From positions 3,472,001 through 3,536,000 of the forward strand of contig NZ_AP017422.1 in assembly GCF_002355595.1 (NCBI RefSeq): a DNA stretch of 64,000 nucleotides, in the 5' to 3' direction. The DNA comes from Filimonas lacunae (GTDB lineage Bacteria; Bacteroidota; Bacteroidia; Chitinophagales; Chitinophagaceae). The notes beneath the pieces are model-generated. The model did not search any database. It was not told the DNA's origin and saw only the letters and a program-made list of their open reading frames with translations. The translations under genes were made by a program, and so were the position numbers. How positions within the stretch are numbered: the first letter of the stretch is position 1; the number at the start of each line of letters is the position of its first letter. Shown one piece after another: positions 36,400 through 49,436 of this stretch.

Positions 36400-38043
36400 A
36401 TGGACAAGGGCACTGAGGTTACGTTTGATATATTGTTTAGTAACGCATCTATGGGCATTCTTGTAACGAATGAACAAGGCATTATTGTGCTGGCCAATCC
36501 TTTTTTACTTTCCCAGTTTCAATATACAGCATCAGAATTACTGGGGGCTCCCCTGGCAAAATTGATTCCCTCGCGCTTTCATCACAGGCATTCTTCGCAC
36601 GTAGCCAACTATCACACCCATCCTAAAAGCCGTCCAATGGGGTTGGGAATGGATCTGTTCGCCGTTAAAAAGAACGGCGATGAATTTCCGGTAGAGGTAA
36701 GCCTGGGTAACTTTGAAACGCAGAAAGGAAAATTTGTAATAGCTTATGTCAGCGATATCTCCTTACGCAAAAAAGCGGAGGAGGAATTGAAGCATTTGAA
36801 TGAAGAACTGGAAGAAAAAATTGCGGAGCGCACCTCTTCTTTAACCAGTACGGTAAAGCAACTGGCAGAACTGATTACACAAACCGAAGCAAAAGATGTG
36901 GAGCTAAGACGGGTAAACATTTTTTTGCACAACGTATGGGAACATGCGGGCGCTATTATTTTTGCCACAGACCCTGCCGGCACTATCACCCTGTTTAACC
37001 CCTCTGCCGAACTTCACCTGGGCTATAAGGCCAATGAAATTATTCAGCATACTTCCCCGGTTATTTTTCACCAGGAGCAGCAGTTAAAACAAACTGCCAG
37101 AACCCTTTCTGCCGAGGCAGGCTTATCCATAGCTCCCGATTTTGCGGTATACCAGCAAATTGCCCAAACCAACCAACCTAAAGAATTTGAGTTCACCTAT
37201 GTAAGAAAGGATCATTCCACCTTTCCTGTTTCACTCAATATCACTGCCATGCGCAATAAAGAGGGCTGTATTGAAGGCTACCTGGGCATCGCCATAGACA
37301 TTACCGAACGTAAAAAAGCAGAAACGGATTTAAGACTGGCCCTCCATAAAGAAATAGAATTAAGCGAATTAAAATCCCGCTTTGTTTCTATTGCGTCCCA
37401 TGAGTTTCGTACACCATTAAGTACTGTGCTTTCTTCCGCGTACCTAATTTCAAAGTATACAGAGTCGAGCGATCATGCAAAGCGGCAAAAACATGTACAA
37501 CGCATCATTTCATCGGTGAATCTGCTAACAGATATTTTAAATGACTTTTTATCGGTGGGCAAAATTGAAGAAGGTAAAATTATAGTACGGCCCGCCTCTT
37601 TCCAGGTGAAAGAACACATCCAAAACATTGTTAGTGAATTGAATGGCCTGATGAAGAAAGGCCAGAAAATAGTGTATACACACGAAGGATGCACAGAGCT
37701 GACAATGGATGCTACCATGTTAAAACATATAGTACTGAACCTGCTATCCAATGCCATTAAGTTTTCACCGGAAAAAACCATTATTCAGCTAGCCAGCAAA
37801 CAAAACCAGACAGGATTTTGTTTAACATGCAGAGATGAAGGCCTGGGCATATCGGAAGAAGACCAGCAGCACCTGTTTGAGCGTTTCTTCAGGGGAAGCA
37901 ATGTATCCAACATACAGGGAACGGGCCTTGGGCTTCATATTATCAGCAAGTATACCGAACTGATGAACGGAACCATATTCTGCAAAAGCAAATTAAACGA
38001 AGGCACTACATTCGAAATACATTTCGCCATTCAACCATGTTAA
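36400..38043 (+). CDS. Soluble PAS-domain sensor histidine kinase
   Basis: A 547-aa cytoplasmic kinase with no membrane segment. PAS domain 1 spans about residues 8-125 (FSNASMGILVTNEQGIIVLA), then a coiled coil at 127-170, then PAS domain 2 at about 172-305 (FATDPAGTITLFNPSAELHL) with a PAC segment. HisKA follows, with the phospho-acceptor His334 in SIASHEFRTPLSTV, and HATPase_c with NLLSNAIKFS and GTGLGLHII. The architecture matches FixL-type soluble redox/oxygen/ligand sensors; whether a PAS domain binds heme or flavin cannot be told. Its stop codon abuts the ATG of the response regulator at 38044, making a clear two-component pair for the stress island. Confidence 0.93.
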   Translation: MDKGTEVTFDILFSNASMGILVTNEQGIIVLANPFLLSQFQYTASELLGAPLAKLIPSRFHHRHSSHVANYHTHPKSRPMGLGMDLFAVKKNGDEFPVEVSLGNFETQKGKFVIAYVSDISLRKKAEEELKHLNEELEEKIAERTSSLTSTVKQLAELITQTEAKDVELRRVNIFLHNVWEHAGAIIFATDPAGTITLFNPSAELHLGYKANEIIQHTSPVIFHQEQQLKQTARTLSAEAGLSIAPDFAVYQQIAQTNQPKEFEFTYVRKDHSTFPVSLNITAMRNKEGCIEGYLGIAIDITERKKAETDLRLALHKEIELSELKSRFVSIASHEFRTPLSTVLSSAYLISKYTESSDHAKRQKHVQRIISSVNLLTDILNDFLSVGKIEEGKIIVRPASFQVKEHIQNIVSELNGLMKKGQKIVYTHEGCTELTMDATMLKHIVLNLLSNAIKFSPEKTIIQLASKQNQTGFCLTCRDEGLGISEEDQQHLFERFFRGSNVSNIQGTGLGLHIISKYTELMNGTIFCKSKLNEGTTFEIHFAIQPC

Positions 38044-39102
38044 ATGCAAACCATCTTACTTATTGAAGACAATAACGATATCCGTGAAAATATGGCCGAG
38101 ATACTGGAACTGGCAGGTTACCAGGTAATTACAGCGGAAAACGGAAAAATAGGTATTGAACAGGCTAAACAAAAAAATCCCGACCTGATTATCTGTGATA
38201 TTATGATGCCTGTTTTAGATGGATATGGCGTATTACACCTGTTGCAACGTGATCCGGAGCTGCAATCGATTCCTTTCATTTTCTTAACTGCCCGAACAGA
38301 AAGAACAGACATCAGAAAAGGTATGGAAATGGGCGCTGATGACTACATCACTAAACCCTTTGAAGGCACAGAATTATTGAGTGCTGTAGAAAGCAGGCTG
38401 AAAAAAACAGCAATGCTTAAAGCTGACTTTTCCAATAACCTCAACGGCGTAAATGAGTTAATTGAAGTGGCAGCAAACAAAGATTATTTAAGCGAACTCA
38501 AAGAAAACCGCAGCATTAATTATTACAAGAAAAAACAGTTAATATATACCGAAGGAAATCATCCATCCCGCCTCTTCTATATTCAAAAAGGAAAAGTGAA
38601 ATGCTTTAAAAGAAATGAGGAGGGTAAAGAACTGATCCTTAAACTCTATAATGAGGGAGAGTTTTTAGGATATATGCCTTTGCTGGAAGGCATTACCTAC
38701 AAAGAAAGCGCAGAAGCATTGGAGGAAACAGAGCTGGCTGTTATTCCCCGCGCAGAATTTGAAGAATTGGTGAACAGCAACCCATTGGTGATGAAAAAGT
38801 TTATTCATATACTGGCAGTCAACATCCATGAAAATGAAAGCCACTTGCTGGGTTTGGCTTTTCATTCCGTTCGAAAGAAAGTAGCTTTTACTTTAGTTAC
38901 CTTATATAAAAAATACCATACTCCCGGCGATACCGATTTCACCATTGATATCTCCCGGGATAACCTCGCCTCTTTAGCAGGCATTGCCAAAGAATCAATG
39001 ATAAGAACCTTGGGAGATTTTAAAGAGGAAAAGCTTATTCAAATCCAGGACAATCGCATATTTATTTCCAACCTGCATAAACTGGAAACATTAATAGATT
39101 AA
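38044..39102 (+). CDS. Response regulator with REC, cNMP-binding-like and Crp-type HTH domains
   Basis: A 352-aa regulator that fuses an N-terminal receiver domain (residues 1-120; acidic pocket IEDNND, phospho-acceptor Asp52 in LIICDIMMP, Lys in YITKPF) to a Crp-like module: cNMP-binding-like fold at about 150-265 (IYTEGNHPSRLFYIQKGKVK) and winged HTH at about 285-345. The recognition helix reads AKESMIRTLGDFKEE and keeps the Glu and Arg that read the TGA half-site in Crp/Fnr proteins. Phosphorylation by the adjacent kinase presumably switches it on. The (A/T)TGAC-N4-GTCAT palindromes upstream of the stress genes have exactly the Fnr-type 5+4+5 layout, so this protein is their most likely reader (inference). 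Confidence 0.93.
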   Translation: MQTILLIEDNNDIRENMAEILELAGYQVITAENGKIGIEQAKQKNPDLIICDIMMPVLDGYGVLHLLQRDPELQSIPFIFLTARTERTDIRKGMEMGADDYITKPFEGTELLSAVESRLKKTAMLKADFSNNLNGVNELIEVAANKDYLSELKENRSINYYKKKQLIYTEGNHPSRLFYIQKGKVKCFKRNEEGKELILKLYNEGEFLGYMPLLEGITYKESAEALEETELAVIPRAEFEELVNSNPLVMKKFIHILAVNIHENESHLLGLAFHSVRKKVAFTLVTLYKKYHTPGDTDFTIDISRDNLASLAGIAKESMIRTLGDFKEEKLIQIQDNRIFISNLHKLETLID

Positions 39103-39111
39103 ACAGAAGCA

Positions 39112-39492
39112 TTAAAGATAAGCTGCCAGGGAATTATTAAACTCCCTGGCCATCTTGTCAAATTCCCGTTTTAGTTTTCCCATGTCTTTTTCCAGTGTCC
39201 TGAAACTGGTTAACCATTTATAAAAATCATCATCCCCTTCTACGGCTTTCATTTGTTCCCAAAGCGAGGCAATATCATGTCTCAGTAATGCAATTAACTG
39301 ATCCTGGTTAATACACAGTTGTTGATAATGCTCAGCTATTTCTATAAAAGCAGCATGCACTTCATTTTGTAACGCTTTTGCCAAAAGGCCTTTTAGCAAC
39401 ACGTTTTCATTCCTGACCTTTTCCAAAGTAGAAAGCCAGCCTTCAATGATGGCAGCAGCCAGGGGTTTGGTATGGTGTAAATTACAGTTCAT
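39112..39492 (-). CDS. Helical hypothetical protein, paralogue of the 44457 gene product
   Basis: A 126-aa, almost entirely helical soluble protein with heptad patterns at residues 15-50 and 95-120. It has no known domain that I recognise. Residues 54-82 (EHYQQLCINQ, then LRHDI at 70-74 and MK at 81-82) align without gaps with residues 51-79 of the 125-aa product at 44457-44834 (EHFQNLLVVQ, LKHDI, MK), so the two are paralogues inside the same island. Its ATG overlaps the alcohol dehydrogenase stop by four bases (ATGA), making it the third gene of the operon baeRF-adh-orf. A binding or adaptor role in the stress response is possible; nothing is established. Confidence 0.75.
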   Translation of the reverse strand: MNCNLHHTKPLAAAIIEGWLSTLEKVRNENVLLKGLLAKALQNEVHAAFIEIAEHYQQLCINQDQLIALLRHDIASLWEQMKAVEGDDDFYKWLTSFRTLEKDMGKLKREFDKMAREFNNSLAAYL

Positions 39493-40517
39493 GCTATATC
39501 CAGTACTACCCTGCCTTCAATTTTACCTGCCTTCATATTACCCAGTACTGTATTAATATCGTCCAGCTTAGCGGTATGTATGGTGGCTTTAACCTTTCCG
39601 GCTACCGCAAAATCAATAGCTTCCTGCAAATCCATGCGTGTGCCTACAATAGAACCTCTTACTGTATAACGGTTTAACACAGTTTCAAAAATGGGCAAAT
39701 CAAAACTGCCTGGCGGCAGGCCGTTCAACGCTATGGTTCCTTTACGCCTTAATGCCGAAATGCCCTGACTAAATGCTATGGGCGAAACAGCCGTTACCAG
39801 CATGCCATGCATTCCGCCTGTTTCTTTTTGCAAAAACGCTCCGGGGTCCTGCTTCTTTGCATTTACTGTAAGTTCGGCTCCCAGGCTGCTGGCAAATGCC
39901 AGTTTTTCATCATCTACATCTATAGCCGCCACCTGCAAGCCCATTGCTTTGGCATATTGAATGGCCAGATGCCCCAGCCCTCCTATGCCCGAAATACCTA
40001 CCCATTGGCCGGGCCGGGTATCAGTTTCTTTTAAACCTTTATATACCGTTACTCCTGCACAAATAATGGGCGCCATGGCTTTGCAATCTGTTCCTGCCGG
40101 AAAATGGCCTACATAACGCGCATCGGCCACTACATATTCCGCATACCCACCATCTACACTGTAGCCCCCATTTCGCTGATCGTGGCAAAGTGTTTCCCAG
40201 CCTGTAATACAAAATTCACAGCAACCACAGGCACTATACAACCAGGGCACGCCTACTATATCGCCCTCCTTAACGCCCGTTACGTCTGGCCCCAGGGCTA
40301 CCACATAGCCAATAGCCTCGTGTCCGGGAATCAGCGGCAACTTGGGTTTCACCGGCCAATCACCATCTGCCGCATGCAAATCGGTATGACATACGCCACT
40401 GGCTACCACTTTTACCAGTATTTCATGTTTGCCCGGTGCCCTCACTGGCATTTCTTCTATTTGCAGTGGTTTACCAAACTCCCTTACCACAGCGGCCTTC
40501 ATTGTTGTTGGTAACAT
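39489..40517 (-). CDS. adhP: Zinc-dependent alcohol dehydrogenase (AdhP-type)
   Basis: A medium-chain alcohol dehydrogenase of about 342 aa that interconverts alcohols and aldehydes with NAD. Catalytic zinc ligands are in ASGVCHTDLHAADGDW and PGHEAIG. The structural zinc four-Cys lobe is CGCCEFCITGWETLC. The Rossmann nucleotide loop is GIGGLGHLAIQYAKAMG. Two ATG starts are plausible (40517 and 40502); the longer reading MLPTTMKAAVVREFGK is typical. It lies 22 bp after the ribosome-hibernation gene and overlaps the next gene by 4 bp. In this context it probably re-oxidises NADH by fermentation or detoxifies aldehydes when respiration stops. Confidence 0.93.
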   Translation of the reverse strand: MLPTTMKAAVVREFGKPLQIEEMPVRAPGKHEILVKVVASGVCHTDLHAADGDWPVKPKLPLIPGHEAIGYVVALGPDVTGVKEGDIVGVPWLYSACGCCEFCITGWETLCHDQRNGGYSVDGGYAEYVVADARYVGHFPAGTDCKAMAPIICAGVTVYKGLKETDTRPGQWVGISGIGGLGHLAIQYAKAMGLQVAAIDVDDEKLAFASSLGAELTVNAKKQDPGAFLQKETGGMHGMLVTAVSPIAFSQGISALRRKGTIALNGLPPGSFDLPIFETVLNRYTVRGSIVGTRMDLQEAIDFAVAGKVKATIHTAKLDDINTVLGNMKAGKIEGRVVLDIA

Positions 40518-40538
40518 ATCTATAAACAATTAATGGAA

Positions 40539-41636
40539 TTAGAAAAAGCGGATCAATGCAATTTTCTGATAAGCTGTTAACAGACCTTCATCTACAAACT
40601 CTACATCTCCTCCATTTATTAAAACCTGTTCTATTACATCATCTACTGCATCTTTTATGTAAAATGGTGTAGCTACCTCTTCTTCCAAAGGCTCAATTAC
40701 ATCATCAGCCGCTATATCTTTCATAGCAGGATACATAAAATTTTTCTCTACCACCAGCAGACTGCCATTTTTATGTTGGGCATCCCGCCATACATTATGT
40801 ATGCCTGCTGTTATCTTATTTTCATTTACGGCCATAGCCAGTTTATGAAGAACATTTTGCTGGCATACTCTTTTCCAGTTAGCCACATAAGGGGCCAGCA
40901 CTTTACCAATCTCCTGCTCACCTGCCTTTTCAAAAGAGCCGGATACATATTGTATCACACGTTTATGATGATGGCTTATTTGTTTAAAATGCCCGATCAC
41001 CTGCTCAGGACCTAGTATAAATAAAGGCAAATCGTGCGATAACAATACTCTTCCCAAACAGAGATCGGCCAGTAACAGAAACTTGTTCCTATCTATTTCA
41101 TCCTGGCTGGCAGTGTCCGAAAAATTACCAGTTTGGGAAGGCAGGTCGCGATGAACCGCTTCGGTTTCTTTAACGCTATTAATAATATGTATGAACTGGG
41201 TAGTATTACCAATAATAAACCGGTAATGATCTTCATTCAATACTAATACGAGGTATTTATGCAAATCTTTTTTAGAAAATACCAGATCCCTTATTTCGAA
41301 AGTTTCATCAATAATGATCTTTTCCTCTACGGCAATATCCAGGTAGTATATTTTTTGAAATACAGGCGACACATAAATAGCAATGCTTTTTTTATAGGAA
41401 GAATAATCTATTGTGTTGATGGCTTCTTCCAGTTTGGCATTAACTGCCAACACCTTATCCTTCGAATAGTTTTTAGCCAATTGCTTATGTACTGTCAATA
41501 CCGCCAGGTGTAACCGGTGTTTTAATTCATGTTTACCCGCCATTTTAGGTTCAAAAGGCAGAATAATAGATATAGCAGGCATATAATGCGTGGCTTCTAT
41601 CACTTCAGCGGCTTCGGAAAAGAACGGTTGTATCAT
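40539..41636 (-). CDS. baeRF-type ribosome hibernation factor (AOC03_06830-like)
   Basis: A 365-aa protein of the bacterial archaeo-eukaryotic release factor (baeRF3-like) family, recently linked to ribosome hibernation. The N-terminal alpha/beta domain contains AISIILPFEP and ISHHHKRVIQYVSGSFEKAG; the C-terminal eRF1-domain-3-like part includes DDVIEQVLINGGDVEFV and LLTAYQKIALI. It has no signal peptide. It is first in a minus-strand operon with an alcohol dehydrogenase and a small helical protein. A consensus -7 box (minus-strand TAGTTTTG, 41673-41680) lies 36 nt from its ATG, and a Crp/Fnr-type palindrome is centred 51.5 bp further upstream. This fits a role in silencing ribosomes when the two-component system signals stress. 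Confidence 0.8.
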   Translation of the reverse strand: MIQPFFSEAAEVIEATHYMPAISIILPFEPKMAGKHELKHRLHLAVLTVHKQLAKNYSKDKVLAVNAKLEEAINTIDYSSYKKSIAIYVSPVFQKIYYLDIAVEEKIIIDETFEIRDLVFSKKDLHKYLVLVLNEDHYRFIIGNTTQFIHIINSVKETEAVHRDLPSQTGNFSDTASQDEIDRNKFLLLADLCLGRVLLSHDLPLFILGPEQVIGHFKQISHHHKRVIQYVSGSFEKAGEQEIGKVLAPYVANWKRVCQQNVLHKLAMAVNENKITAGIHNVWRDAQHKNGSLLVVEKNFMYPAMKDIAADDVIEPLEEEVATPFYIKDAVDDVIEQVLINGGDVEFVDEGLLTAYQKIALIRFF

Positions 41637-41672: not shown

Positions 41673-41680
41673 CAAAACTA
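41673..41680 (-). promoter_or_regulatory. -7 promoter box for the baeRF-adh operon
   Basis: The plus-strand bases CAAAACTA read TAGTTTTG on the minus strand, an exact match to the Bacteroidota -7 consensus TAnnTTTG. The palindrome centre at 41731.5 is 51.5 bp upstream of the box. Confidence 0.6.
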
Positions 41681-41723
41681 CACCTGGCGTCATACAACGA
41701 CGATGAGAAGCATCACCGCTACC

Positions 41724-41739
41724 GATGACAGTTGTCATC
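41724..41739. promoter_or_regulatory. Crp/Fnr-type operator palindrome, site a
   Basis: A perfect dyad GATGACAGTTGTCATC (TGAC-N4-GTCA core) lies between the divergent baeRF operon and the first universal stress gene. It is one of three such palindromes, one in each promoter-bearing intergenic region of the island (others 42683-42698 and 48551-48566). A weak box CTCTTTTG (41782-41789) lies 50.5 bp away on the stress-gene side. Confidence 0.65.
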
Positions 41740-41843
41740 ACCTACCGGCATCTAACAATGATAATTCTCATTCCTCCCACGCTCTTTTGTCATTTCTTCC
41801 GGCAGCAAAACGGGGTACATTCAGTGCATAAAAAAATTTTGTC

Positions 41844-42662
41844 ATGAGAAAAGTTGTCATAGCCTTTAACGGCAGCCATTTTTCGGAAGGTGCTTTTGAA
41901 TTTGCACGCAGGATGAATGTGGAGCGCACGATTTTACTTACCGGTATTTTTTTACCTCAGACAGATTATGCTGGCTTATGGAGTTATGCAGGCCCACTGG
42001 GCGGTACTTTATACGACAGACTGCTGGAAGAAGAACACTCGGAAGACCTGGAAAAGAACATAGCTCATTTTGAATGCCTGTGTAATAAACACCAGATTGC
42101 TTATAGCATACACAAAAACTTTTCCGACTTTGCCTTACCCGGCCTGATAAAGGAAACCCGTTTTTCCGATCTGGCTATTATAAGCTGCGAAACCCTCTAT
42201 TCCAATATGGGGAATGAACATTACGAGTATGTAAAAGAATTGCTGCACACCGCGGAATGCCCCGTAATAATGGTTCCCGAGCAATTTACCTACCCTACCG
42301 GCAATATACTGGCCTATGATGGAAGCGAATCGGCAGCCTACGCTATTAAGCAATTCACCTACCTGTTTCCGGAGTGGCACTCACATAAAACCCTGTTGGT
42401 ATACACACAGGAGACCATGCAGGAAATACCCGACGAATTTTATATTAAAGAGCTCACTGCCAGGCATTTCACTGCATTAACTTCTATGGTATTACCCATA
42501 CAGGAAAGTAAATATTTTTCTACCTGGATAAGTGAGCAGCCCGCTTCTATCCTGGTAAGCGGGGCATTTAGCAAATCGTATTTTGCCAGGATGTTTAAGA
42601 AAAGCTTTGTTGCCGATGTACTGAAAGAGCATTTACTACCTGTATTTATGGCACACCGTTAA
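41844..42662 (+). CDS. Universal stress protein, tandem UspA domains (no. 1)
   Basis: A 272-aa cytoplasmic protein built of two UspA-like halves. The first begins KVVIAFNGSHFSEGAFEFAR and ends at AECPVIMVPEQF; the second begins NILAYDGSESAAYAIKQFTY and ends PVFMAHR. The glycine-rich ATP loop near the C-terminus is reduced (SGAFSKSYFARMFKKS), with only part of the G-2x-G-9x-G(S/T) pattern. The ATG at 41844 overlaps the bases of a GTCATGAG half-site. Such proteins help survival under starvation, hypoxia and oxidative stress; the exact partner is not known. It is a single gene with its own upstream palindrome, and a second palindrome follows it. Confidence 0.9.
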   Translation: MRKVVIAFNGSHFSEGAFEFARRMNVERTILLTGIFLPQTDYAGLWSYAGPLGGTLYDRLLEEEHSEDLEKNIAHFECLCNKHQIAYSIHKNFSDFALPGLIKETRFSDLAIISCETLYSNMGNEHYEYVKELLHTAECPVIMVPEQFTYPTGNILAYDGSESAAYAIKQFTYLFPEWHSHKTLLVYTQETMQEIPDEFYIKELTARHFTALTSMVLPIQESKYFSTWISEQPASILVSGAFSKSYFARMFKKSFVADVLKEHLLPVFMAHR

Positions 42663-42682
42663 TATAACAATAATTTATATAA

Positions 42683-42698
42683 GTTGACGAATGTCATT
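42683..42698 (+). promoter_or_regulatory. Crp/Fnr-type operator palindrome, site b
   Basis: GTTGACGAATGTCATT has the core TGAC-N4-GTCA and one imperfect outer pair. The centre at 42690.5 is 51.5 bp upstream of an exact -7 box, the same spacing as at site a. Confidence 0.65.
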
Positions 42699-42741
42699 GT
42701 CACCTATAGCAGGTATCATCGTAATAAGGAAATACAACTAC

Positions 42742-42749
42742 TAGCTTTG
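42742..42749 (+). promoter_or_regulatory. -7 promoter box of the usp2-ldt operon
   Basis: TAGCTTTG matches TAnnTTTG exactly and lies 17 nt before the ATG at 42767, so the leader would be very short. No TTTG is seen at the -33 position, consistent with a promoter that depends on an activator. Confidence 0.65.
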
Positions 42750-42766
42750 GTATCAAACATATTGTT

Positions 42767-43603
42767 ATGGAAAAGATTCTGGTAACGATGGATGCTACAA
42801 AATTGAACAGAAACCTGTTAGATTTTGCAGCTTATGTAGCAAGGCTTACCCATTCCAAAATAACGGGTGTTTTTTTAGAAAGCCCGGAAGCAGAAGAAAT
42901 AGTTCCGGTAAGAAAATCGGTATTGGGTATGCCTTATGTCGACAGCATTGTAGCTGGCAACTTACCAGAAGTAAAAGAACGAAATAAACTTTACAATGAA
43001 AATGTGAAGCTGTTTAAAGAAGCCTGTGATACACGCGGCATTCCTTACTCATTATGTTATAACCACTGCCTGGCCGATATTATTACAGAAAGCCGGTTTG
43101 CAGATGTATTGATTGTAGATGCCGAAATGTCTTTTAACAGCCAGTACGACGGCACTCCCAGCAGTTTTATCAAAGAGGTACTGGCAAAAGCAGAATGCCC
43201 GGTGATTATAGCCCCCTTTCACTTCACCGCCATTGAAGAAATATTGTTTGCTTACGACGGTTCTATGTCCTGTGTTTTTGCCATGAAGCAGTTCACTTAC
43301 CTTTTTCCCGAACTGGCAGATAAAAAGATACGGGTACTGGAAGTAAACGCACACAAAGACAGCGAAATAACTCAAAGAAATAAAGTAGGCGAATGGCTAA
43401 AAATGCACTATTCGTGCATTGGGTTTGAACTATTGCACGGCAATGCCAGTACTTCCCTGCTACAGCAGCTATTGGGCAAGCAGAACACTTTTGTAGTAAT
43501 GGGGGCATTTGGCCGTAACATGTTATCGGGTTTCTTTAAGCACAGCACGGCCGAATTGGTAATACGTACCATTGATCTCCCTGTATTTATTGCTCACCAT
43601 TAA
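42767..43603 (+). CDS. Universal stress protein, tandem UspA domains (no. 2)
   Basis: A 278-aa two-domain Usp. Half one is KILVTMDATKLNRNLLDFAA through AECPVIIAPFHF; half two starts EILFAYDGSMSCVFAMKQFT. The C-terminal ATP-type loop GAFGRNMLSGFFKHST nearly fits G-2x-G-9x-G(S/T), with His in the last Gly position, so nucleotide binding is plausible for this copy. It is the first gene of the long operon usp2-usp3-orf-M50-ldt (gaps of 6 to 19 bp), transcribed from the box at 42742. It is similar to the products at 41844 and 43614, evidence of local duplication. Confidence 0.91.
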   Translation: MEKILVTMDATKLNRNLLDFAAYVARLTHSKITGVFLESPEAEEIVPVRKSVLGMPYVDSIVAGNLPEVKERNKLYNENVKLFKEACDTRGIPYSLCYNHCLADIITESRFADVLIVDAEMSFNSQYDGTPSSFIKEVLAKAECPVIIAPFHFTAIEEILFAYDGSMSCVFAMKQFTYLFPELADKKIRVLEVNAHKDSEITQRNKVGEWLKMHYSCIGFELLHGNASTSLLQQLLGKQNTFVVMGAFGRNMLSGFFKHSTAELVIRTIDLPVFIAHH

Positions 43604-43613
43604 AATTCATACC

Positions 43614-44450
43614 ATGAAAAAGATAATTGCCGCTTTTGATGGCTTTGATTACTCCACCAGCACCGCCCGCTATGCCATTCAGCTGTGCAAAGAATGTAAC
43701 GCACACCTGGTAGGCGTGTTTTTAGATGATGTTACCTATCACAGCTATAAATTGTCGGAAATAACCGGCAATGGTGGCATACGCACCGAAAAATGGGATA
43801 TGCTGGAAGCCGGCGACAAAGAAAAACGCGAAGAAGCGGCAAGTAATTTTGAACATGCCTGTCAGCAGGCAAAAATTGAATATTCCATTCATCATAATAA
43901 ATATGTAGCCATTCATGAGCTACTGCATGAAAGTATATATGCCGATTTGCTGATAGTGAATAAAACAGAAAGCTTTTCGGCTTATGATGAAAAAACACCT
44001 ACCTTTTTCATGCACGAGTTATTGAGCAATGTGCAATGCCCTGTGCTGGTAACCCCACTTACCTATAATCCTATTGAAAAAATAGTACTGTTATACGATG
44101 GCAGCCCGGCATCAGTATTTGCCATACAAAGTTTCAGTTCCTTATTCAGCTCGCTGAAAAGATTACCTGTAGAAGTTTTAACGGTAAAGAACCATAAACA
44201 CAACTTGCATTTGCCTGATAACAAGCTGATGAAAGAATTTATGAAAAGGCATTTTCCGGAAGCAAAATATATGATTACAAGCGGAAATGCAGATGACCAG
44301 ATTTTAGCTTATTTATTAAAACAGCACGAAAATACTTTACTGGTGCTTGGTGCTTACCAACGCAGTAAAATGTCGAGATGGTTTAAAGCCAGCACGGCAG
44401 ACACGCTAATGGAAAACTCCAGTGTTCCTTTATTCATAGCACATAAATAA
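43614..44450 (+). CDS. Universal stress protein, tandem UspA domains (no. 3)
   Basis: A 278-aa two-domain Usp starting MKKIIAAFDGFDYSTSTARY at 43614; upstream in-frame starts would overlap the previous gene. Half one ends VQCPVLVTPLTY; half two begins KIVLLYDGSPASVFAIQSFS. The C-terminal loop GAYQRSKMSRWFKAST lacks the second glycine of the ATP signature, so ATP binding is doubtful. It lies 10 bp after usp2 and 6 bp before the small helical gene, in the same operon. Confidence 0.91.
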   Translation: MKKIIAAFDGFDYSTSTARYAIQLCKECNAHLVGVFLDDVTYHSYKLSEITGNGGIRTEKWDMLEAGDKEKREEAASNFEHACQQAKIEYSIHHNKYVAIHELLHESIYADLLIVNKTESFSAYDEKTPTFFMHELLSNVQCPVLVTPLTYNPIEKIVLLYDGSPASVFAIQSFSSLFSSLKRLPVEVLTVKNHKHNLHLPDNKLMKEFMKRHFPEAKYMITSGNADDQILAYLLKQHENTLLVLGAYQRSKMSRWFKASTADTLMENSSVPLFIAHK

Positions 44451-44456
44451 ACAGTT

Positions 44457-44834
44457 ATGCTAATTCTCAACATAGAAAATTACCACACCGAAATGGAAGA
44501 ATCCATTGATATGCTTTCTTTTTATAACGATGAAATATCCTCGTTGGAAAAGCGGTTGCAGGAAGTAGTGGAAAAAAACACAAAACAACCGATACTGGCA
44601 CAGGTAGAGCATTTTCAAAACCTGCTGGTAGTGCAGAAAGAAAAATTTGCGCAACTAAAACACGACATCCAACGCCAGAAAGTACGGATGAAAGAATATG
44701 TAACCAAAGAAAAAGAACCATTGAGCGATATCCAGGTAAACAGTCATAAACTACGCGAAGAAATACTAATGACCACTAAAATATTTACAGAGACCAAACA
44801 TACCTGTTACCAGTTTTTAGCAAAAGTATTATAA
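44457..44834 (+). CDS. Helical hypothetical protein, paralogue of the 39112 gene product
   Basis: A 125-aa soluble coiled-coil-rich protein with no recognised domain. Residues 51-79 (EHFQNLLVVQ, LKHDI at 67-71, MK at 78-79) match the 39112-39492 product at the same spacing: EH to HD is 18 residues in both. The N-terminal heptads ISSLEKRLQEV also resemble LSTLEKVRNEN of the other protein. It sits inside the usp2-usp3-orf-M50-ldt operon, 6 bp after usp3. Both small proteins are thus co-regulated with stress genes. A structural or adaptor function is possible; none is known. Confidence 0.78.
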   Translation: MLILNIENYHTEMEESIDMLSFYNDEISSLEKRLQEVVEKNTKQPILAQVEHFQNLLVVQKEKFAQLKHDIQRQKVRMKEYVTKEKEPLSDIQVNSHKLREEILMTTKIFTETKHTCYQFLAKVL

Positions 44835-44853
44835 ACCAATTAATACAATTTTT

Positions 44854-45975
44854 ATGCGCGGAGCCACTAAAATAGCGACAATAAAAAAGGTGAGTGTATA
44901 TATACACTGGACTTTTTTGCTACTACCCGTTTGGATAGTAATGGTATATACCCAGTATGGGGCCAGCCTGTCAGAGCTTTCCTGGGCGTTCGCCTTTCTG
45001 CTGGCAGTATTTGTATGTATCCTCCTGCACGAGCTGGGTCATGCCCTGGTAGCGGCCCGCTTTGGCATTCATTCCAAAAGCATTTTGCTGTTACCCATGG
45101 GCGGCATTGCTAGCCTGGAAAAGCTGCCCGATAATTCCCGGCAAGAGCTGGCTATTAGTGCTGCCGGGCCCCTGGTAAACCTGCTGATAGCAGCCATATT
45201 GCTTGTTTTTGTAAAAGACAAATATGGTTTCTGGCAAACAGATGAACAGTTGAGTATAGCAGAAAAAGAATACTTCCTGGTAAATTTGTATGTAGCCAAT
45301 ATATGGCTGGTTGTTTTTAACCTTATACCAGCCTTCCCTTTAGATGGTGGCCGCATGTTACGTGCGTTGCTGGGTTTTAAACTTAATTATATACACGCTA
45401 CCGGCACAGTGGCTGTTATCAGTAAAATAATAGCGATTGGTTGCCTGATAGCAGGCGTAGCTTTTTTCAATATTCCCTTATTAGCACTGGGCATTTTTAT
45501 AATGTATGCTGCCGGCATGGAAGAGCACTATTTAAAATTGAAAGCACTGGTAAAAGGTATTAAACTGAAGGAAGTGCTGATGCACGATTACAACAGCCTG
45601 CAATGTAACTCCCCCATAAAAGACGCCGCCAATATTCTTATGAACAACCATACCCGGTATTTTATTGTACTGGACAATGGTGCACCCAAAGGCACTATTA
45701 ACAGAATGGATATTATTACGGCCATGGCAGAAAAAAAATACGATTTACCGGTAGGCTCTTTTATGAAAGAGAACCTGAGTTGCCTGGATGGAGAAAAAGA
45801 GGTATCGTCTGTATTGGATAAACTGGCTGGTAATGGAGAACGTATTTACCCGGTAATGGAAAACAGCCGTTTTTCGGGGGTGATCAATTTTACACATATT
45901 ATTGAATACCTGTTGTTAAATAAAGCATCCTCCATCGAATATGATAAAATAAAATCATTGTCGGGCCTGGTATAA
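44854..45975 (+). CDS. Site-2-type M50 membrane metalloprotease with CBS-domain pair
   Basis: A 373-aa intramembrane protease. The zinc motif is HELGH at residues 59-63, and the second ligand is in NLIPAFPLDGGRML near 163. About six hydrophobic segments cover residues 15-225, starting TFLLLPVWIVMVY. A CBS pair (about 240-370; SPIKDAANILMNNHTRYFIV, VGSFMKENLSCLDGEKEVSS) forms the cytoplasmic tail, which in related enzymes binds adenine nucleotides and gates activity. It belongs to the Rip3/YwhC-like subgroup. It lies in the stress operon between the small helical gene and the L,D-transpeptidase. It may cut an anti-sigma factor or other membrane substrate in response to energy state (inference). 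Confidence 0.91.
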   Translation: MRGATKIATIKKVSVYIHWTFLLLPVWIVMVYTQYGASLSELSWAFAFLLAVFVCILLHELGHALVAARFGIHSKSILLLPMGGIASLEKLPDNSRQELAISAAGPLVNLLIAAILLVFVKDKYGFWQTDEQLSIAEKEYFLVNLYVANIWLVVFNLIPAFPLDGGRMLRALLGFKLNYIHATGTVAVISKIIAIGCLIAGVAFFNIPLLALGIFIMYAAGMEEHYLKLKALVKGIKLKEVLMHDYNSLQCNSPIKDAANILMNNHTRYFIVLDNGAPKGTINRMDIITAMAEKKYDLPVGSFMKENLSCLDGEKEVSSVLDKLAGNGERIYPVMENSRFSGVINFTHIIEYLLLNKASSIEYDKIKSLSGLV

Positions 45976-45985
45976 ACCGGTTATT

Positions 45986-47548
45986 ATGATAAAGTATATA
46001 AAAACAGGGTTATTGGCAGCAAGTTTATTGGCCCAGGCTTTCTTTACCCAGGCACAGCTTACACCTGCCACTATTAGGGAATATCTTTTGCAGCCTGTAT
46101 TGCCTGGCCATATTGCGCTTCCCTATCTGCGCCAGGTGAAAATATTTTATGATTGTTATCAATACCGCCCGGCCTGGATAAACGATGACAGCGCCAGGAC
46201 GCAACTGTTAGCTTACCTTTCCCAATCAGCAGCGCTGGGCCTGAATGATAGCCTGTATCAATATACTACCCTGCAATCATTCCGGCATAGCACTACACAA
46301 CTGTTCACAGTTACTGATTCCATCATGGCCGAACTACAGCTAACAGATGCCTGCATCCATTTTCTGGATGAATTATTATATGGAAACGCCACACCAGAAA
46401 CCGGCTACAATGGCCTGGATTATACACCGGGATGCATTTCTGTGGCAACACTGCTGGCCGCTGCCTTACAGGAAGGTAATTTTGGCAGCTTATTGCAGTT
46501 ATACGAAAATACATCGCCCGGATATATAGCAACCAAAAGCAGGTTGGGGCAATTATTACGGATACAGCAAGACAGCTCTTTTCATAGCCAGCGGCCCGTT
46601 AGCTCGCCGGCTGTAACCTGCGCCAACAAACCCCTTCTGTACAAATTATGGCAATACGGTTATTTAACTTCTCCTATTGATTCATTACCTGATGATAGCC
46701 TGAAACAGAAGCTAAAAGAGGTACAACAATTATTCTCTTTACAGGCAGATGGTATATTGCGCCCTAATCTTATGAAAGAATTAAATGTACCTGTGGAGGT
46801 GAGAATACAACAACTGGCAAAGGCACTGAACACCTTTCGCTGGATGAATTGCCTGCGGCAGCAAAACAAATGGGTGGTAGTGGTAAATATTCCTTCGGCT
46901 AACTTGCTGGTATACGAATGCGACACAGTTGTACTGGAGTCGCGCATTGTAGTGGGTAAAAAATCAACTCCCACCCCATTGTTCATCACCAGCATCAGCG
47001 AAGTAGTGATGTACCCTTACTGGACAGTACCCCACTCTATTGCCACCCGCGAATTGATTCCCATGTTTGCATTGAACCCACGCATGGTAGCAGCCAACAA
47101 CTTTTCTATCTTAAACGATCACGGCAACATTGTACCCCCAACCTCTATTAACTGGAAGGCTTTAAAAGGCAAAAACTTCCCATACACCATACGGCAGTCA
47201 ACCGGTTGCGACAATGCGCTGGGCATTATTAAACTAAACTTTTATACGCCTTATGGCGTATACCTGCACGATACCCCCTGGAAAATTTTATTCAATACCT
47301 ACAACCGCTATTACAGTCATGGATGTATGCGGGTAGAAAAAATAATACCACTGGCACACATGGTATTGGAAGGCAATGCCATTGCCATGGATACCATTCT
47401 TCAAAAAGGCAACCTGCTGCATCAACAACCGGTTACCATTCCCGCCACTTCCAAAATCCCCCTACTGGTTTTATATAATACCTCCTGGGTAGACTCAGCG
47501 GCCCACGTAAGGTTTTACCCGGATGTGTATCAAAAACAACGTTATTAG
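45986..47548 (+). CDS. L,D-transpeptidase (YkuD domain, YcbB-like)
   Basis: A 520-aa exported cell-wall enzyme. A signal peptide (GLLAASLLAQAFFTQAQ) precedes the YcbB-like scaffold (VKIFYDCYQYRPAWINDD) and a peptidoglycan-binding-like segment (LKEVQQLFSLQADGILRPNL). The YkuD catalytic domain contains the nucleophile Cys447 in YSHGCMRVEK and an upstream His in GVYLHDTPWK. Such enzymes form 3-3 peptide cross-links in peptidoglycan, which stabilise the wall of non-growing cells. It is the last gene of the usp2 operon, 10 bp after the protease gene, and converges with pfkB. Confidence 0.91.
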   Translation: MIKYIKTGLLAASLLAQAFFTQAQLTPATIREYLLQPVLPGHIALPYLRQVKIFYDCYQYRPAWINDDSARTQLLAYLSQSAALGLNDSLYQYTTLQSFRHSTTQLFTVTDSIMAELQLTDACIHFLDELLYGNATPETGYNGLDYTPGCISVATLLAAALQEGNFGSLLQLYENTSPGYIATKSRLGQLLRIQQDSSFHSQRPVSSPAVTCANKPLLYKLWQYGYLTSPIDSLPDDSLKQKLKEVQQLFSLQADGILRPNLMKELNVPVEVRIQQLAKALNTFRWMNCLRQQNKWVVVVNIPSANLLVYECDTVVLESRIVVGKKSTPTPLFITSISEVVMYPYWTVPHSIATRELIPMFALNPRMVAANNFSILNDHGNIVPPTSINWKALKGKNFPYTIRQSTGCDNALGIIKLNFYTPYGVYLHDTPWKILFNTYNRYYSHGCMRVEKIIPLAHMVLEGNAIAMDTILQKGNLLHQQPVTIPATSKIPLLVLYNTSWVDSAAHVRFYPDVYQKQRY

Positions 47549-47556
47549 TAACAGTT

Positions 47557-48483
47557 TCAGCTATGTATCATCTCATAGATCTTTTCTGCATCTTCCCGTT
47601 TACACAAAGCTGTTCCTTCATTCATGGTAGCAGCCGTTCCGCACGCCACTCCCCACCTCACCGCTTCAGCCAGAGTTTTGGCCTGTGTTAACCCCAACAA
47701 AATGCCGCCTAACATGGAGTCGCCGGCACCTACCGTGCTTTTTACACGCACCGGCGGTGGCACCATATGAACAGAGTCTTTTTCCGTAACGAGCAAGGCA
47801 CCTGCTGCCCCCATAGAAACCACCAGCACTTCGCACGGGTATTGATGAATAACCTGCCTGGCAGTGGCCGCAATTTCCCCGGCATTCAATGCTTGCTTAC
47901 CTACCAGTGATGCTAACTCGCCCAAATTGGGCTTTACTAAATAAGCCCCTGCCTTAGCAGCCAGCAGCAGTCCTTCGCCCGAAGTATCCACCACATATCT
48001 TGCATTTTTAGCCCTGGCAATAGCCGCCAGCCTGGCAAACACTACCGGAGGTATGCCAGGTGATAAACTGCCGCTTGCTACCAGGTAATCTATGGAATTG
48101 ATTTGAGAAAGCTGTTGCATACATCCCTCCCATTCCATAGCGCTTACTTCGGGCCCCGGCATTCCAAACCGGTATTGTAACTGTGTATGACTATCCACTA
48201 CTATCAGGTTTTGCCTGGTATTGTTGCTGATTACATATGGCACTACCTGCACATCCTCCTGCTGTAGCAACTGTTGCAGCAACTGGCCATTGGCTCCGCC
48301 ACTTAAAAAAACGGCCGTAGCTTCACCGCCCATTTTTTGAATAGCCCTGGCCACGTTTATGCCACCTCCGCCCGGCTCATATACCGGTAGCCGGCAATGC
48401 AGTTTCTTTTCCGGAATGAGCGCAGCAACACTGGTTGACACATCTACCGCAGGATTTAAAGTAACAGTAACAATAGCAGCCAT
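47557..48483 (-). CDS. pfkB: PfkB-family hexose-phosphate kinase (1-phosphofructokinase/Pfk-2 type)
   Basis: A 308-aa PfkB-type sugar kinase of the FruK/PfkB/LacC group. It begins with TVTLNPAVDVSTSVAALIP; the substrate-binding glycines are in EPGGGGINVARAIQKMGG; the ATP/anion-hole motif with the catalytic Asp about 253 is VGAGDSMLGGILLGL. It phosphorylates fructose-6-phosphate or a related sugar phosphate. It diverges from usp4 and shares an intergenic region holding palindrome c. A -7-like box (minus strand TAATTTTA, 48500-48507) lies 51.5 bp from the palindrome centre and 16 nt before the ATG. A second phosphofructokinase in a stress regulon fits faster glycolysis without respiration. Confidence 0.92.
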   Translation of the reverse strand: MAAIVTVTLNPAVDVSTSVAALIPEKKLHCRLPVYEPGGGGINVARAIQKMGGEATAVFLSGGANGQLLQQLLQQEDVQVVPYVISNNTRQNLIVVDSHTQLQYRFGMPGPEVSAMEWEGCMQQLSQINSIDYLVASGSLSPGIPPVVFARLAAIARAKNARYVVDTSGEGLLLAAKAGAYLVKPNLGELASLVGKQALNAGEIAATARQVIHQYPCEVLVVSMGAAGALLVTEKDSVHMVPPPVRVKSTVGAGDSMLGGILLGLTQAKTLAEAVRWGVACGTAATMNEGTALCKREDAEKIYEMIHS

Positions 48484-48499
48484 GGAGGTATACTTTCTT

Positions 48500-48507
48500 T
48501 AAAATTA
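48500..48507 (-). promoter_or_regulatory. -7-like box of pfkB
   Basis: Minus-strand TAATTTTA fits TAnnTTTG in five of six defined positions. Its upstream edge is 51.5 bp from the centre of palindrome c (48558.5), equal to the spacing at the baeRF and usp2 promoters. Confidence 0.45.
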
Positions 48508-48550
48508 TATGCTTTCAAAAAATTATACTATGAGCATTGTCACTGCCAGC

Positions 48551-48566
48551 AATGACTCCTGTCATT
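48551..48566. promoter_or_regulatory. Crp/Fnr-type operator palindrome, site c
   Basis: AATGACTCCTGTCATT is a perfect 6-bp-arm dyad around a 4-bp spacer, with the TGAC-N4-GTCA core. It lies between divergent pfkB and usp4. On the usp4 side the -7 box is 29.5 bp away; on the pfkB side it is 51.5 bp away. Confidence 0.65.
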
Positions 48567-48587
48567 TTTGGCGATGATTGTACAAAT

Positions 48588-48595
48588 TAGATTTG
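48588..48595 (+). promoter_or_regulatory. -7 promoter box of usp4-P-ATPase
   Basis: TAGATTTG is an exact TAnnTTTG match, 19 nt before the ATG at 48615. It is 29.5 bp from the palindrome centre, that is 22 bp (two helical turns) closer than in the other promoters. Confidence 0.6.
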
Positions 48596-48614: not shown

Positions 48615-49436
48615 ATGGAAACCATTATTATCGCAACCGATTTTTCCCATGCAGCCACCAATGCGGCCTTATATGCTGCAGAACTGGCAAACGCATTACA
48701 AAAGGAATTACTGATACTTTATATTGATACGCTGCCGGTAACTTATGCAGACGTTCCTATTCCCACCAGGCTGGAAGAGATGACAGAGATGGGTGAAATG
48801 GAAATTAAAAAACTACAGGAAAGGCTGATACTGCACACCACTGGCAATATATCCATTACCACCGAAATACAAATGGGTACATTTTTTACAACACTTACTT
48901 CGGTTTGTGAGCGTGTACACCCTTACGCTGTAGTAATGGGCAGCCAGGGCACAACCGCCAGTGAAAGGTTCTTCTTTGGCGGGCATACCGTACATGCTAT
49001 GAAGCATTTGAAATGGCCACTTATTACCGTGCCACCACAGGCAAAATTTTCACCTGTTACCCAGATAGGATTGGCCTGCGACTTTGAAAACATTCTGGCA
49101 ACCACACCGTTATCCGGTATTAGAAAGCTGGTAAAAGATTTTCATGCAAAGCTGCATGTATTAAACTCAGGCAGCGGCTCTGAATATAATCCCGATACTG
49201 TTTTTGAGTCTGCCTTATTAGAGGATTTGCTTTCCGGGCTGGATCCTGAATTTCATTATATAACTGATAAAGACCACGATCCGGATAAAGCGCTGGTTGA
49301 TTTTGTTAAAAACAATCATATACAACTGCTGTTGGTATTACCTAAACAGCACCACCTGCTGGAAAGTATTTTTCATAAAAGCCATACCAAACAACTGGTA
49401 TTAAACAGCGATGTACCTGTAATGGCTTTGCATTAA
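48615..49436 (+). CDS. Universal stress protein, tandem UspA domains (no. 4)
   Basis: A 273-aa two-domain Usp. Half one (TIIIATDFSHAATNAALYAA to LKWPLITVPPQAKF) carries the best ATP loop of the four copies, MGSQGTTASERFFFGGHT, close to G-2x-G-9x-G(S/T). Half two (IGLACDFENILATTPLSGIR to VPVMALH) is degenerate in that motif. It differs clearly from the other three, so it is an older paralogue. It is the first gene of a two-gene operon with the P-type ATPase 14 bp downstream, and is controlled from the region holding palindrome c. Confidence 0.91.
   Translation: METIIIATDFSHAATNAALYAAELANALQKELLILYIDTLPVTYADVPIPTRLEEMTEMGEMEIKKLQERLILHTTGNISITTEIQMGTFFTTLTSVCERVHPYAVVMGSQGTTASERFFFGGHTVHAMKHLKWPLITVPPQAKFSPVTQIGLACDFENILATTPLSGIRKLVKDFHAKLHVLNSGSGSEYNPDTVFESALLEDLLSGLDPEFHYITDKDHDPDKALVDFVKNNHIQLLLVLPKQHHLLESIFHKSHTKQLVLNSDVPVMALH

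What the first reader, a model, noticed from the sequence alone, without database searches (positions are those of the whole stretch)
41673..48595. A Crp/Fnr-type palindrome with fixed promoter spacing governs a stress island
Seen in the sequence: all three promoter-bearing intergenic gaps of the island hold a TGAC-N4-GTCA dyad (41724-41739 GATGAC-AGTT-GTCATC; 42683-42698 GTTGAC-GAAT-GTCATT; 48551-48566 AATGAC-TCCT-GTCATT). The centre is exactly 51.5 bp from the nearest -7 box (TAnnTTTG) in the baeRF operon (exact box), the usp2 operon (exact box) and pfkB (5 of 6 positions); 29.5 bp in usp4 (exact box), two helical turns closer; and about 50.5 bp in usp1 (weak box). A repeated, in-phase spacing like this is unlikely by chance. 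Known: Crp/Fnr activators bind 5+4+5 or 5+6+5 dyads at fixed helical phases relative to the -10 region. Inferred: the REC-cNMP-HTH regulator at 38044 is the reader and activates every operon here.
Basis: partly seen in the sequence, partly recalled or inferred. Interest (0 to 1): 0.88.

Follow-up and report, generated by a model that had tools for sequence, protein, structure and literature searches.

The report
Twin-site low-oxygen gene switch

Summary
The three dyads and both main spacings are confirmed, and they recur far beyond this window. In 1.41 Mb around 80 relatives of the REC-Crp regulator, TGAC-N4-GTCA was the most over-represented of 3,328 palindromes. Boxes lie 29.5 or 51.5 bp from its centre, i.e. 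at -41.5 or -63.5.

In 31 of 37 promoters of the 51.5 class, half of a second dyad (TCA) sits at -41.5. Near REC-Crp, TGA-N6-TCA dyads pair at 22 bp 98 times, against a median of 1 for other spacings. In the window, usp4 and pfkB share one such array.

Array promoters go with REC-Crp: 18 of 22 genomes that have them carry it, against 43 of all 296; 16 of 34 lie within 10 kb of it.

Genes after these sites include ccoN, hemN-like, cytochrome c, pyruvate:ferredoxin oxidoreductase, Usp and baeRF: a microaerobic flavour, not generic stress. A FixL-like PAS kinase precedes the regulator. An FNR-like protein in the same genome has nearly the same recognition helix and may share or dominate the sites. 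Nothing was tested experimentally.

The parts
36400..38043 (+). PAS-PAS-HisKA-HATPase sensor kinase; first PAS resembles FixL/DosP heme PAS
   Evidence: Pfam; PDB sequence match 1d06 FixL E 2.4e-9, second to an unnamed-function kinase PAS 10jx E 2.4e-11; proximal His column kept
38044..39102 (+). REC-Crp regulator (Response_reg + cNMP_binding + HTH_Crp_2), likely reader
   Evidence: Pfam; E8 D9 D52 T82 K104 present, T82 is Ser in one of the aligned relatives; co-occurrence
39112..39492 (-). 126-aa protein of unknown family
   Evidence: no Pfam or NCBIfam match; one relative beside a dyad
39489..40529 (-). zinc alcohol dehydrogenase, presumably in the baeRF operon
   Evidence: Pfam; operon inferred from order and gaps
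40539..41636 (-). baeRF family 3 protein, related to ribosome hibernation factor family NF052287
   Evidence: Pfam; NCBIfam 200 bits, below the 330 cut-off
41673..41680 (-). -7 box TAGTTTTG of the baeRF operon
41704..41737 (.). exact 22-bp tandem array; for baeRF 41704-41715 is at -41.5 and 41726-41737 at -63.5
   Evidence: box 4 of 6 read
42685..42696 (.). usp2 dyad at -63.5 (TGACGAATGTCA)
42707..42718 (.). usp2 degenerate dyad at -41.5 (TAGCAGGTATCA, two mismatches; proximal TCAT intact)
   Evidence: position predicted, of which it is one of the 37 rows
42742..42749 (+). -7 box TAGCTTTG of the usp2 operon
42767..47548 (+). presumed operon: usp2, usp3 (not scanned), 125-aa protein, membrane peptidase with CBS domains (by eye and weak NCBIfam matches), L,D-transpeptidase-like protein
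47557..48483 (-). pfkB-family kinase
   Evidence: Pfam
48500..48507 (-). -7 box of pfkB, TAATTTTA, 5 of 6
48531..48564 (.). exact tandem array shared by two divergent promoters: 48531-48542 is -41.5 for pfkB and -63.5 for usp4; 48553-48564 is the reverse
48588..48595 (+). -7 box TAGATTTG of usp4
48615..49436 (+). usp4 (two Usp stretches), followed by a P-type ATPase at 49450-51954

Best explanation
The dyads are operators of a low-oxygen or redox regulon that often uses 22-bp tandem arrays: two TGA-N6-TCA dyads (strong form TGAC-N4-GTCA) centred at -41.5 and -63.5 of promoters with the Bacteroidota -7 box TAnnTTTG. A PAS kinase of FixL type (36400-38043) senses the signal and phosphorylates the REC-Crp protein (38044-39102). 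Phosphorylated REC-Crp dimers bind the dyads side by side on one face of the helix. The proximal dimer contacts RNA polymerase as a class II activator; the distal one stabilises it. Usp, baeRF, dehydrogenase and transporter genes are switched on when oxygen falls. Shown by computation: the operator, its spacing and phase, the genes beside it, its link to REC-Crp. Inferred: binding, phosphorylation, sign of control, signal, cooperativity. An FNR-like protein may share the operator.
For:: 62 exact dyads in 80 REC-Crp loci against a median of 8 for other spacers; 51 of 62 intergenic where the coding fraction is 0.90; over 124 dyad sides, exact boxes 13 at 29.5 and 6 at 51.5, mean 0.23 per position; in 147 genomes 136 composites at 29.5 (reversed control 14), 37 at 51.5 (control 3), mean 3.2 per spacing between, the two edge spacings apart; partner dyads appear unselected; 98 pairs at 22 bp, median 1; of 196 strand-sides of such pairs 41 have an exact box at the predicted distance; composites in 71 of 107 REC-Crp genomes, 8 of 40 without; 18 of 22 array genomes have REC-Crp (p 1e-13); of 34 arrays in them 16 lie within 10 kb of it and 7 within 200 bp (about 0.15 expected within 10 kb, assuming 4.8 Mb genomes); tandem array upstream of the kinase in 23 of 67 loci; 57 of 534 other genes with a gap of 60 bp or more; microaerobic genes. 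FixL similarity.
Against: Raw dyad excess does not depend on REC-Crp. Four of 22 array genomes lack REC-Crp, one with four arrays. An FNR-like protein in the same genome has nearly the same recognition helix and sits beside an array. Loci of stand-alone Crp homologues of P0002 hold 5 arrays in 104 kb, 48 per Mb, against 128 per Mb in the central 4 kb of 45 full REC-Crp loci. Most 29.5-class promoters show no clear partner (TCA in 54 of 145). The kinase promoter in this window lacks a site. The FixL distal arginine column is methionine here. Spacing +1 is also enriched: 27 at 30.5. Relatedness of genomes was not corrected for. No expression or binding data.
Confidence: 0.72

Rival explanations
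1. The FNR-like stand-alone regulator (cysteine-bearing, beside the cco genes) is the main reader; the kinase-REC-Crp operon is one of its targets and shares the operator by descent. Not exclusive of the best explanation.
For: L327:1539-2282 (-): best NCBIfam match Fnr, 97 bits, below the 228 cut-off; helix GTATESTIRLLS against GTATES.IRTLS; arrays beside it in G000 and G015 and beside a similar protein in G287; arrays in four genomes without REC-Crp.
Against: Array promoters go with REC-Crp across 296 genomes and sit within 34 bp of its gene in seven genomes.
Confidence: 0.4
2. The stand-alone Crp P0002 (own exact dyad upstream, G000:C1:890163) is the reader.
For: Exact extended palindrome before its own gene; 5 arrays and 7 exact dyads in 104 kb around 30 homologues; in the 7 genomes with it but without REC-Crp the dyad excess is highest, 1.74.
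Against: Its presence makes little difference to composites in REC-Crp genomes: 4.6% per dyad with it, 4.0% without. Different helix (LRVETVIRAI) and 20% identity to the Crp part of REC-Crp.
Confidence: 0.1
3. The sites are repressor operators of the same proteins rather than activator sites.
For: Sequence alone does not give the sign of regulation.
Against: -41.5 and -63.5, upstream of the box and two turns apart, are activator-type positions in the CRP/FNR family (recalled).
Confidence: 0.08
4. Chance palindromes.
For: Three exact dyads alone in 64 kb are only mildly unusual: 2 of 100 shuffles; degenerate dyads show no excess.
Confidence: 0.01

Closest known systems
FixL-FixJ-FixK (FixK2) cascade of rhizobia
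   Same: PAS sensor kinase, phospho-relay, Crp/Fnr-type activator, cbb3 oxidase and related microaerobic targets (general knowledge; abstract beginnings of PMC7888657 and PMC6710368 seen in the listings)
   Different: Here receiver and Crp are one protein, with no FixJ-type LuxR output; Usp and baeRF genes at the sites; 22-bp tandem operators; distal heme arginine column not kept in the window's kinase
FNR of E. coli and FnrL
   Same: Dyad geometry TGA-N6-TCA, -41.5 class II position, hemN/ccoN/fermentation-type genes (FNR features recalled)
   Different: REC-Crp starts with a receiver and has no N-terminal cysteine cluster; the base after TCA is mostly T (TCAT) where FNR is recalled to want TCAA; frequent 22-bp partner dyad
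Usp-rich hypoxia regulons (DosR of mycobacteria, Anr of Pseudomonas; recalled)
   Same: Universal stress proteins and dehydrogenases under low-oxygen control
   Different: Different regulator architecture and operator
MalR-like CRP/FNR proteins proposed for Flavobacteriales and Saprospiraceae (PMC8510549, passages read)
   Same: CRP/FNR homologues of Bacteroidota in a community with oxygen cycles
   Different: There proposed to sense carbon and searched with a MalR matrix; no receiver-Crp in the passages shown, and the term TGAC has 0 occurrences in its main text

Membership tests
Crp/Fnr regulator | cNMP-binding fold plus Crp-type HTH | tested here: met
   Pfam PF00027 and PF13545; PDB sequence matches to CRP; by sequence only, no model was built
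Crp/Fnr regulator | Two-fold operator with 5-4-5 half-sites at class I/II positions | tested here: met
   -12 to -5 placement of the box from PMC9723704 (passage); binding itself not tested
FNR proper | Iron-sulfur cysteine ligands | tested here: not met
   REC-Crp begins with a receiver domain and has no cysteine cluster
CRP proper | cAMP-binding residues | tested here: inconclusive
   Compared by eye with recalled CRP positions only; E72 and R82 do not seem kept
Two-component response regulator | Phospho-acceptor Asp and helper residues, kinase gene beside it | tested here: met
   E8 D9 D52 T82 K104; ORF of 300 aa or more directly upstream in 67 of 80 loci, some loci being cut short; these and the two own kinases are listed
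FixL oxygen sensor | Heme PAS with proximal His and distal Arg | tested here: inconclusive
   Proximal His column kept, distal Arg column is Met; the G302 kinase keeps Arg (by eye) and scores 161 bits against the FixL model, cut-off 850; heme not testable
FixJ | REC fused to LuxR-type HTH | tested here: not met
   REC fused to Crp
Balon ribosome hibernation factor (NF052287) | NCBIfam curated score 330 | tested here: not met
   200 bits for the window baeRF

The most novel reading that the evidence does not exclude
Bacteroidota use a two-component oxygen or redox switch in which a FixL-type kinase acts on a receiver fused to a Crp-type activator. Adjacent dimers bind cooperatively in 22-bp phased arrays of two or three dyads, possibly mixed with FNR dimers, so that the arrays integrate two oxygen sensors. 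The regulon couples the high-affinity oxidase and fermentation to Usp and ribosome-hibernation-type proteins, i.e. low-oxygen dormancy.
Probability: 0.4. Interest if true: 0.82.

Novelty: new variant of a known kind. Interest (0 to 1): 0.72.

Why it matters
In the capped listings of my searches (titles and abstract beginnings, open-licence papers only) I saw no paper naming this regulator or operator. PMC9723704 reports cbb3 induction on oxygen limitation in Flavobacterium psychrophilum, and the terms 'Crp' and 'Fnr' do not occur in its main text (passages). If true, the 22-bp array with a fixed promoter distance is specific enough to annotate low-oxygen regulons in Bacteroidota from sequence, and it turns a vague 'stress island' into direct binding and deletion tests. 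The array shared by pfkB and usp4 would be a compact divergent switch.

Tried and rejected
Raw dyad counts per genome as a test of the regulator: no association with REC-Crp (N4 over other spacers 1.29 and 1.19 in two REC-Crp identity classes, 1.27 without). P0002 as reader: not supported by presence or absence, though arrays do lie near its homologues. Reading 51.5 as a lone class I site: rejected after aligning all 37 such promoters. usp1 as a target: box 4 of 6 at 50.5; that spacing is mildly enriched family-wide (11 hits), so it is not excluded. The reversed-pattern control is a weak yardstick, since the reversed dyad is itself more common: over the 21 in-between spacings it gave 172 against 99; the comparison between spacings is the better one. 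Random windows as control are mostly coding; the gene-based control (57 of 534) is fairer. A second signature pattern for the kinases was badly set and matched 16 of 69; the first matched 49 of 69. No structure prediction was run.
Full report
WHAT WAS CLAIMED AND WHAT IS THERE. The three TGAC-N4-GTCA dyads are at the stated places and are the only exact ones in the window. Their distances to the TAnnTTTG boxes are as stated. In PMC9723704 (passages read) this box spans -12 to -5 in a flavobacterium, so a centre 29.5 bp from its first base is at -41.5 and 51.5 is at -63.5. Taken alone, three dyads are a mild surprise, and degenerate dyads show no excess. The own genome (7.81 Mb, one contig) has 30, of which 19 are intergenic by a crude ORF call. 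With spacers 0-12 counted together there are 262.

THE SPACING IS REAL ELSEWHERE. In their 1.41 Mb, TGAC-N4-GTCA ranked first of 3,328 half-site/spacer combinations: 62 against a median of 8 for other spacers. The 62 lie in 43 of the 80 loci and 51 of them are intergenic. Measured on both sides of each dyad (124 sides), exact boxes were found 13 times at 29.5, 6 at 51.5 and never from 24.5 to 28.5 or 30.5 to 35.5; the mean was 0.23 per position. In 147 genomes of the family, dyad plus exact box was found 136 times at 29.5 (reversed-pattern control 14) and 37 times at 51.5 (control 3). The 21 spacings between gave 99 together (reversed control 172), of which 27 were at 30.5 and 11 at 50.5; the other 19 average 3.2. 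So the phase is sharp, with a minor class one base off.

THE 22-BP TANDEM. Aligning all 37 promoters of the 51.5 class brought out an unselected second dyad centred at -41.5: TCA at -38 to -36 in 31 of 37 (0-3 at the other offsets printed), TGA at -47 to -45 in 14 of 37. The 145 distinct promoters of the 29.5 class on hand showed the mirror image in a minority, a second dyad at -63.5: TCA in 54, TGA in 44; the mean over 120 offsets, the fixed dyad included, is 3.8 and 3.7. Four promoters had an exact dyad at -85.5: all four keep TCA at the -41.5 place, three keep TCA at the -63.5 place, and the TGA halves are patchy. In the 80 loci, TGA-N6-TCA dyads pair at 22 bp 98 times against a median of 1 for other spacings (7 at most). 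Of 64 half-site triplets tested, TGA stands alone; the next best gave 5. Of 196 strand-sides of such pairs, 41 have an exact box at the predicted distance. In 96 oriented arrays (box at least 5 of 6) the base after TCA prefers T, 51% at -57 and 66% at -35. In the window, exact arrays are at 41704-41737 and 48531-48564. The usp2 promoter has the strong dyad at -63.5 and a degenerate one at -41.5. The second array serves two divergent promoters: each dyad is -41.5 for one gene and -63.5 for the other.

WHO READS IT. The product of 38044-39102 has REC, cNMP-binding and Crp HTH domains, keeps the phosphorylation residues and follows a kinase-sized ORF in 67 of 80 loci. A tandem array lies upstream of that ORF in 23 of 67 loci, against 2.4% of random, mostly coding windows. 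By gene, a tandem was found for 20 of 72 genes matching the window kinase and 57 of 534 other genes with a gap of 60 bp or more. The own genome has a second REC-Crp, 63% identical. Beside it lie a second usp-baeRF pair, each gene with its own class II dyad. Dyad-plus-box composites occur in 71 of 107 family genomes with REC-Crp and in 8 of 40 without: 125 per 2,951 dyads against 11 per 788, Fisher p 7e-5. Presence of the stand-alone Crp P0002 makes little difference. In a phylum-wide draw of 296 genomes, array plus exact box was found in 22 (reversed control 0); 18 of these have REC-Crp, against 43 of 296 overall at E 1e-60 (p 1e-13). Of 34 arrays in REC-Crp genomes, 16 lie within 10 kb of it and 7 within 200 bp. 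Relatedness among genomes was not corrected for.

RESULTS AGAINST. Raw dyad counts do not track REC-Crp. Four array genomes lack it, one with four arrays. The own genome's array at 6,480,762 lies beside an FNR-like gene with cysteines and a nearly identical recognition helix (Fnr model 97 bits, cut-off 228). Loci of P0002 homologues hold 5 arrays in 104 kb, or 48 per Mb, against 128 per Mb in the central 4 kb of 45 full-length REC-Crp loci and about 0.8 per Mb in the whole own genome. The operator may therefore be shared by two or more regulators.

WHAT IT CONTROLS. Of 145 distinct composite sites on hand, 139 had a downstream ORF; 138 were scanned with Pfam, cut to 280 residues (25 of 116 families shown). 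Members: YiaA/B 14, cytochrome c 8, COX1 4, Usp 4, rhodanese 4, YgaP-like 4, radical SAM 3 (HemN-like by eye), pyruvate:ferredoxin oxidoreductase 2, nitroreductase 2, baeRF family 3 in 2, DoxX 2; the rest belong to other or no families. By BLAST against the window, 8 match the 125-aa protein, 5 a Usp and 4 baeRF. The own genome has six tandem arrays: one, with a perfect box, precedes ccoN at 6,476,529; one lies inside a predicted ORF (2,548,110); three are in the two islands; one is beside the FNR-like gene. An exact dyad, without an exact box in phase, lies between a nitrate/nitrite-type transporter and moaA (names by eye). In seven more distant genomes an array directly after REC-Crp precedes an Hsp20-like gene (3) or a gene that looks like D-lactate dehydrogenase (4, by eye). 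In the 80 loci a class II arrangement was found for 23 of 72 kinase-like genes, 6 of 14 usp, 71 of 534 other genes and 0 of 2 pfkB; no baeRF gene qualified.

HOW IT MOST LIKELY WORKS. The first PAS domain of the kinase matches FixL and DosP heme PAS domains (FixL 1d06, E 2.4e-9; the top hit is a kinase PAS of unstated function, 10jx), with the proximal histidine column kept but the distal arginine column methionine. A kinase directly upstream of REC-Crp in G302 keeps that arginine and hits the FixL model below its cut-off. I infer that the kinase senses oxygen, a related gas or redox state. Phospho-REC-Crp would occupy the dyads on one helix face and activate from -41.5. Binding, sign, signal and cooperativity are inferences.

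NOVELTY. Crp/Fnr activators, FixLJ-FixK and class II sites are known. The receiver-Crp fusion as an apparent counterpart in Bacteroidota, with a strict 22-bp double operator, was not seen in the listings and passages I had. I file it as a new variant of a known kind.

Noticed in passing
window 40539-41636 and L020:4014-5114: The window baeRF scores 200 bits against the NCBIfam ribosome hibernation factor family NF052287, below its cut-off; the relation to Balon (PMC10901736, search listing only) suggests low-oxygen ribosome hibernation. The second copy was not scanned whole.
   Followed up: partly
G000:C1:2187000-2193500 (L020, L311): A second, paralogous island: usp, baeRF, 125-aa protein, REC-Crp and a one-PAS kinase.
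   Followed up: yes
window 44457-44834 and 39112-39492: Small proteins without Pfam match; 8 of 139 genes after composite sites match the 125-aa one by BLAST, so it may be a regulon-specific unknown family.
   Followed up: partly
L155:1563-1955, L274:654-1061, L120:11220-11591, L292: Another recurrent unknown family of about 130 aa (EIQxEFxxxFPFLxxEFF-like) beside sites, seen by eye.
   Followed up: no
L327:1539-2282 (-): FNR-like regulator with N-terminal cysteines a few kb from the cco genes; candidate direct oxygen sensor sharing the operator.
   Followed up: partly
L018 and L122: Stand-alone Crp P0002 has an extended palindrome (TTTATGACGTAGGTCATAAA) upstream of its own gene.
   Followed up: partly
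L049, L050, L057, L064, L070: Five Chitinophaga kinases did not match the FixL-like PAS signature, so the sensor part may vary.
   Followed up: no
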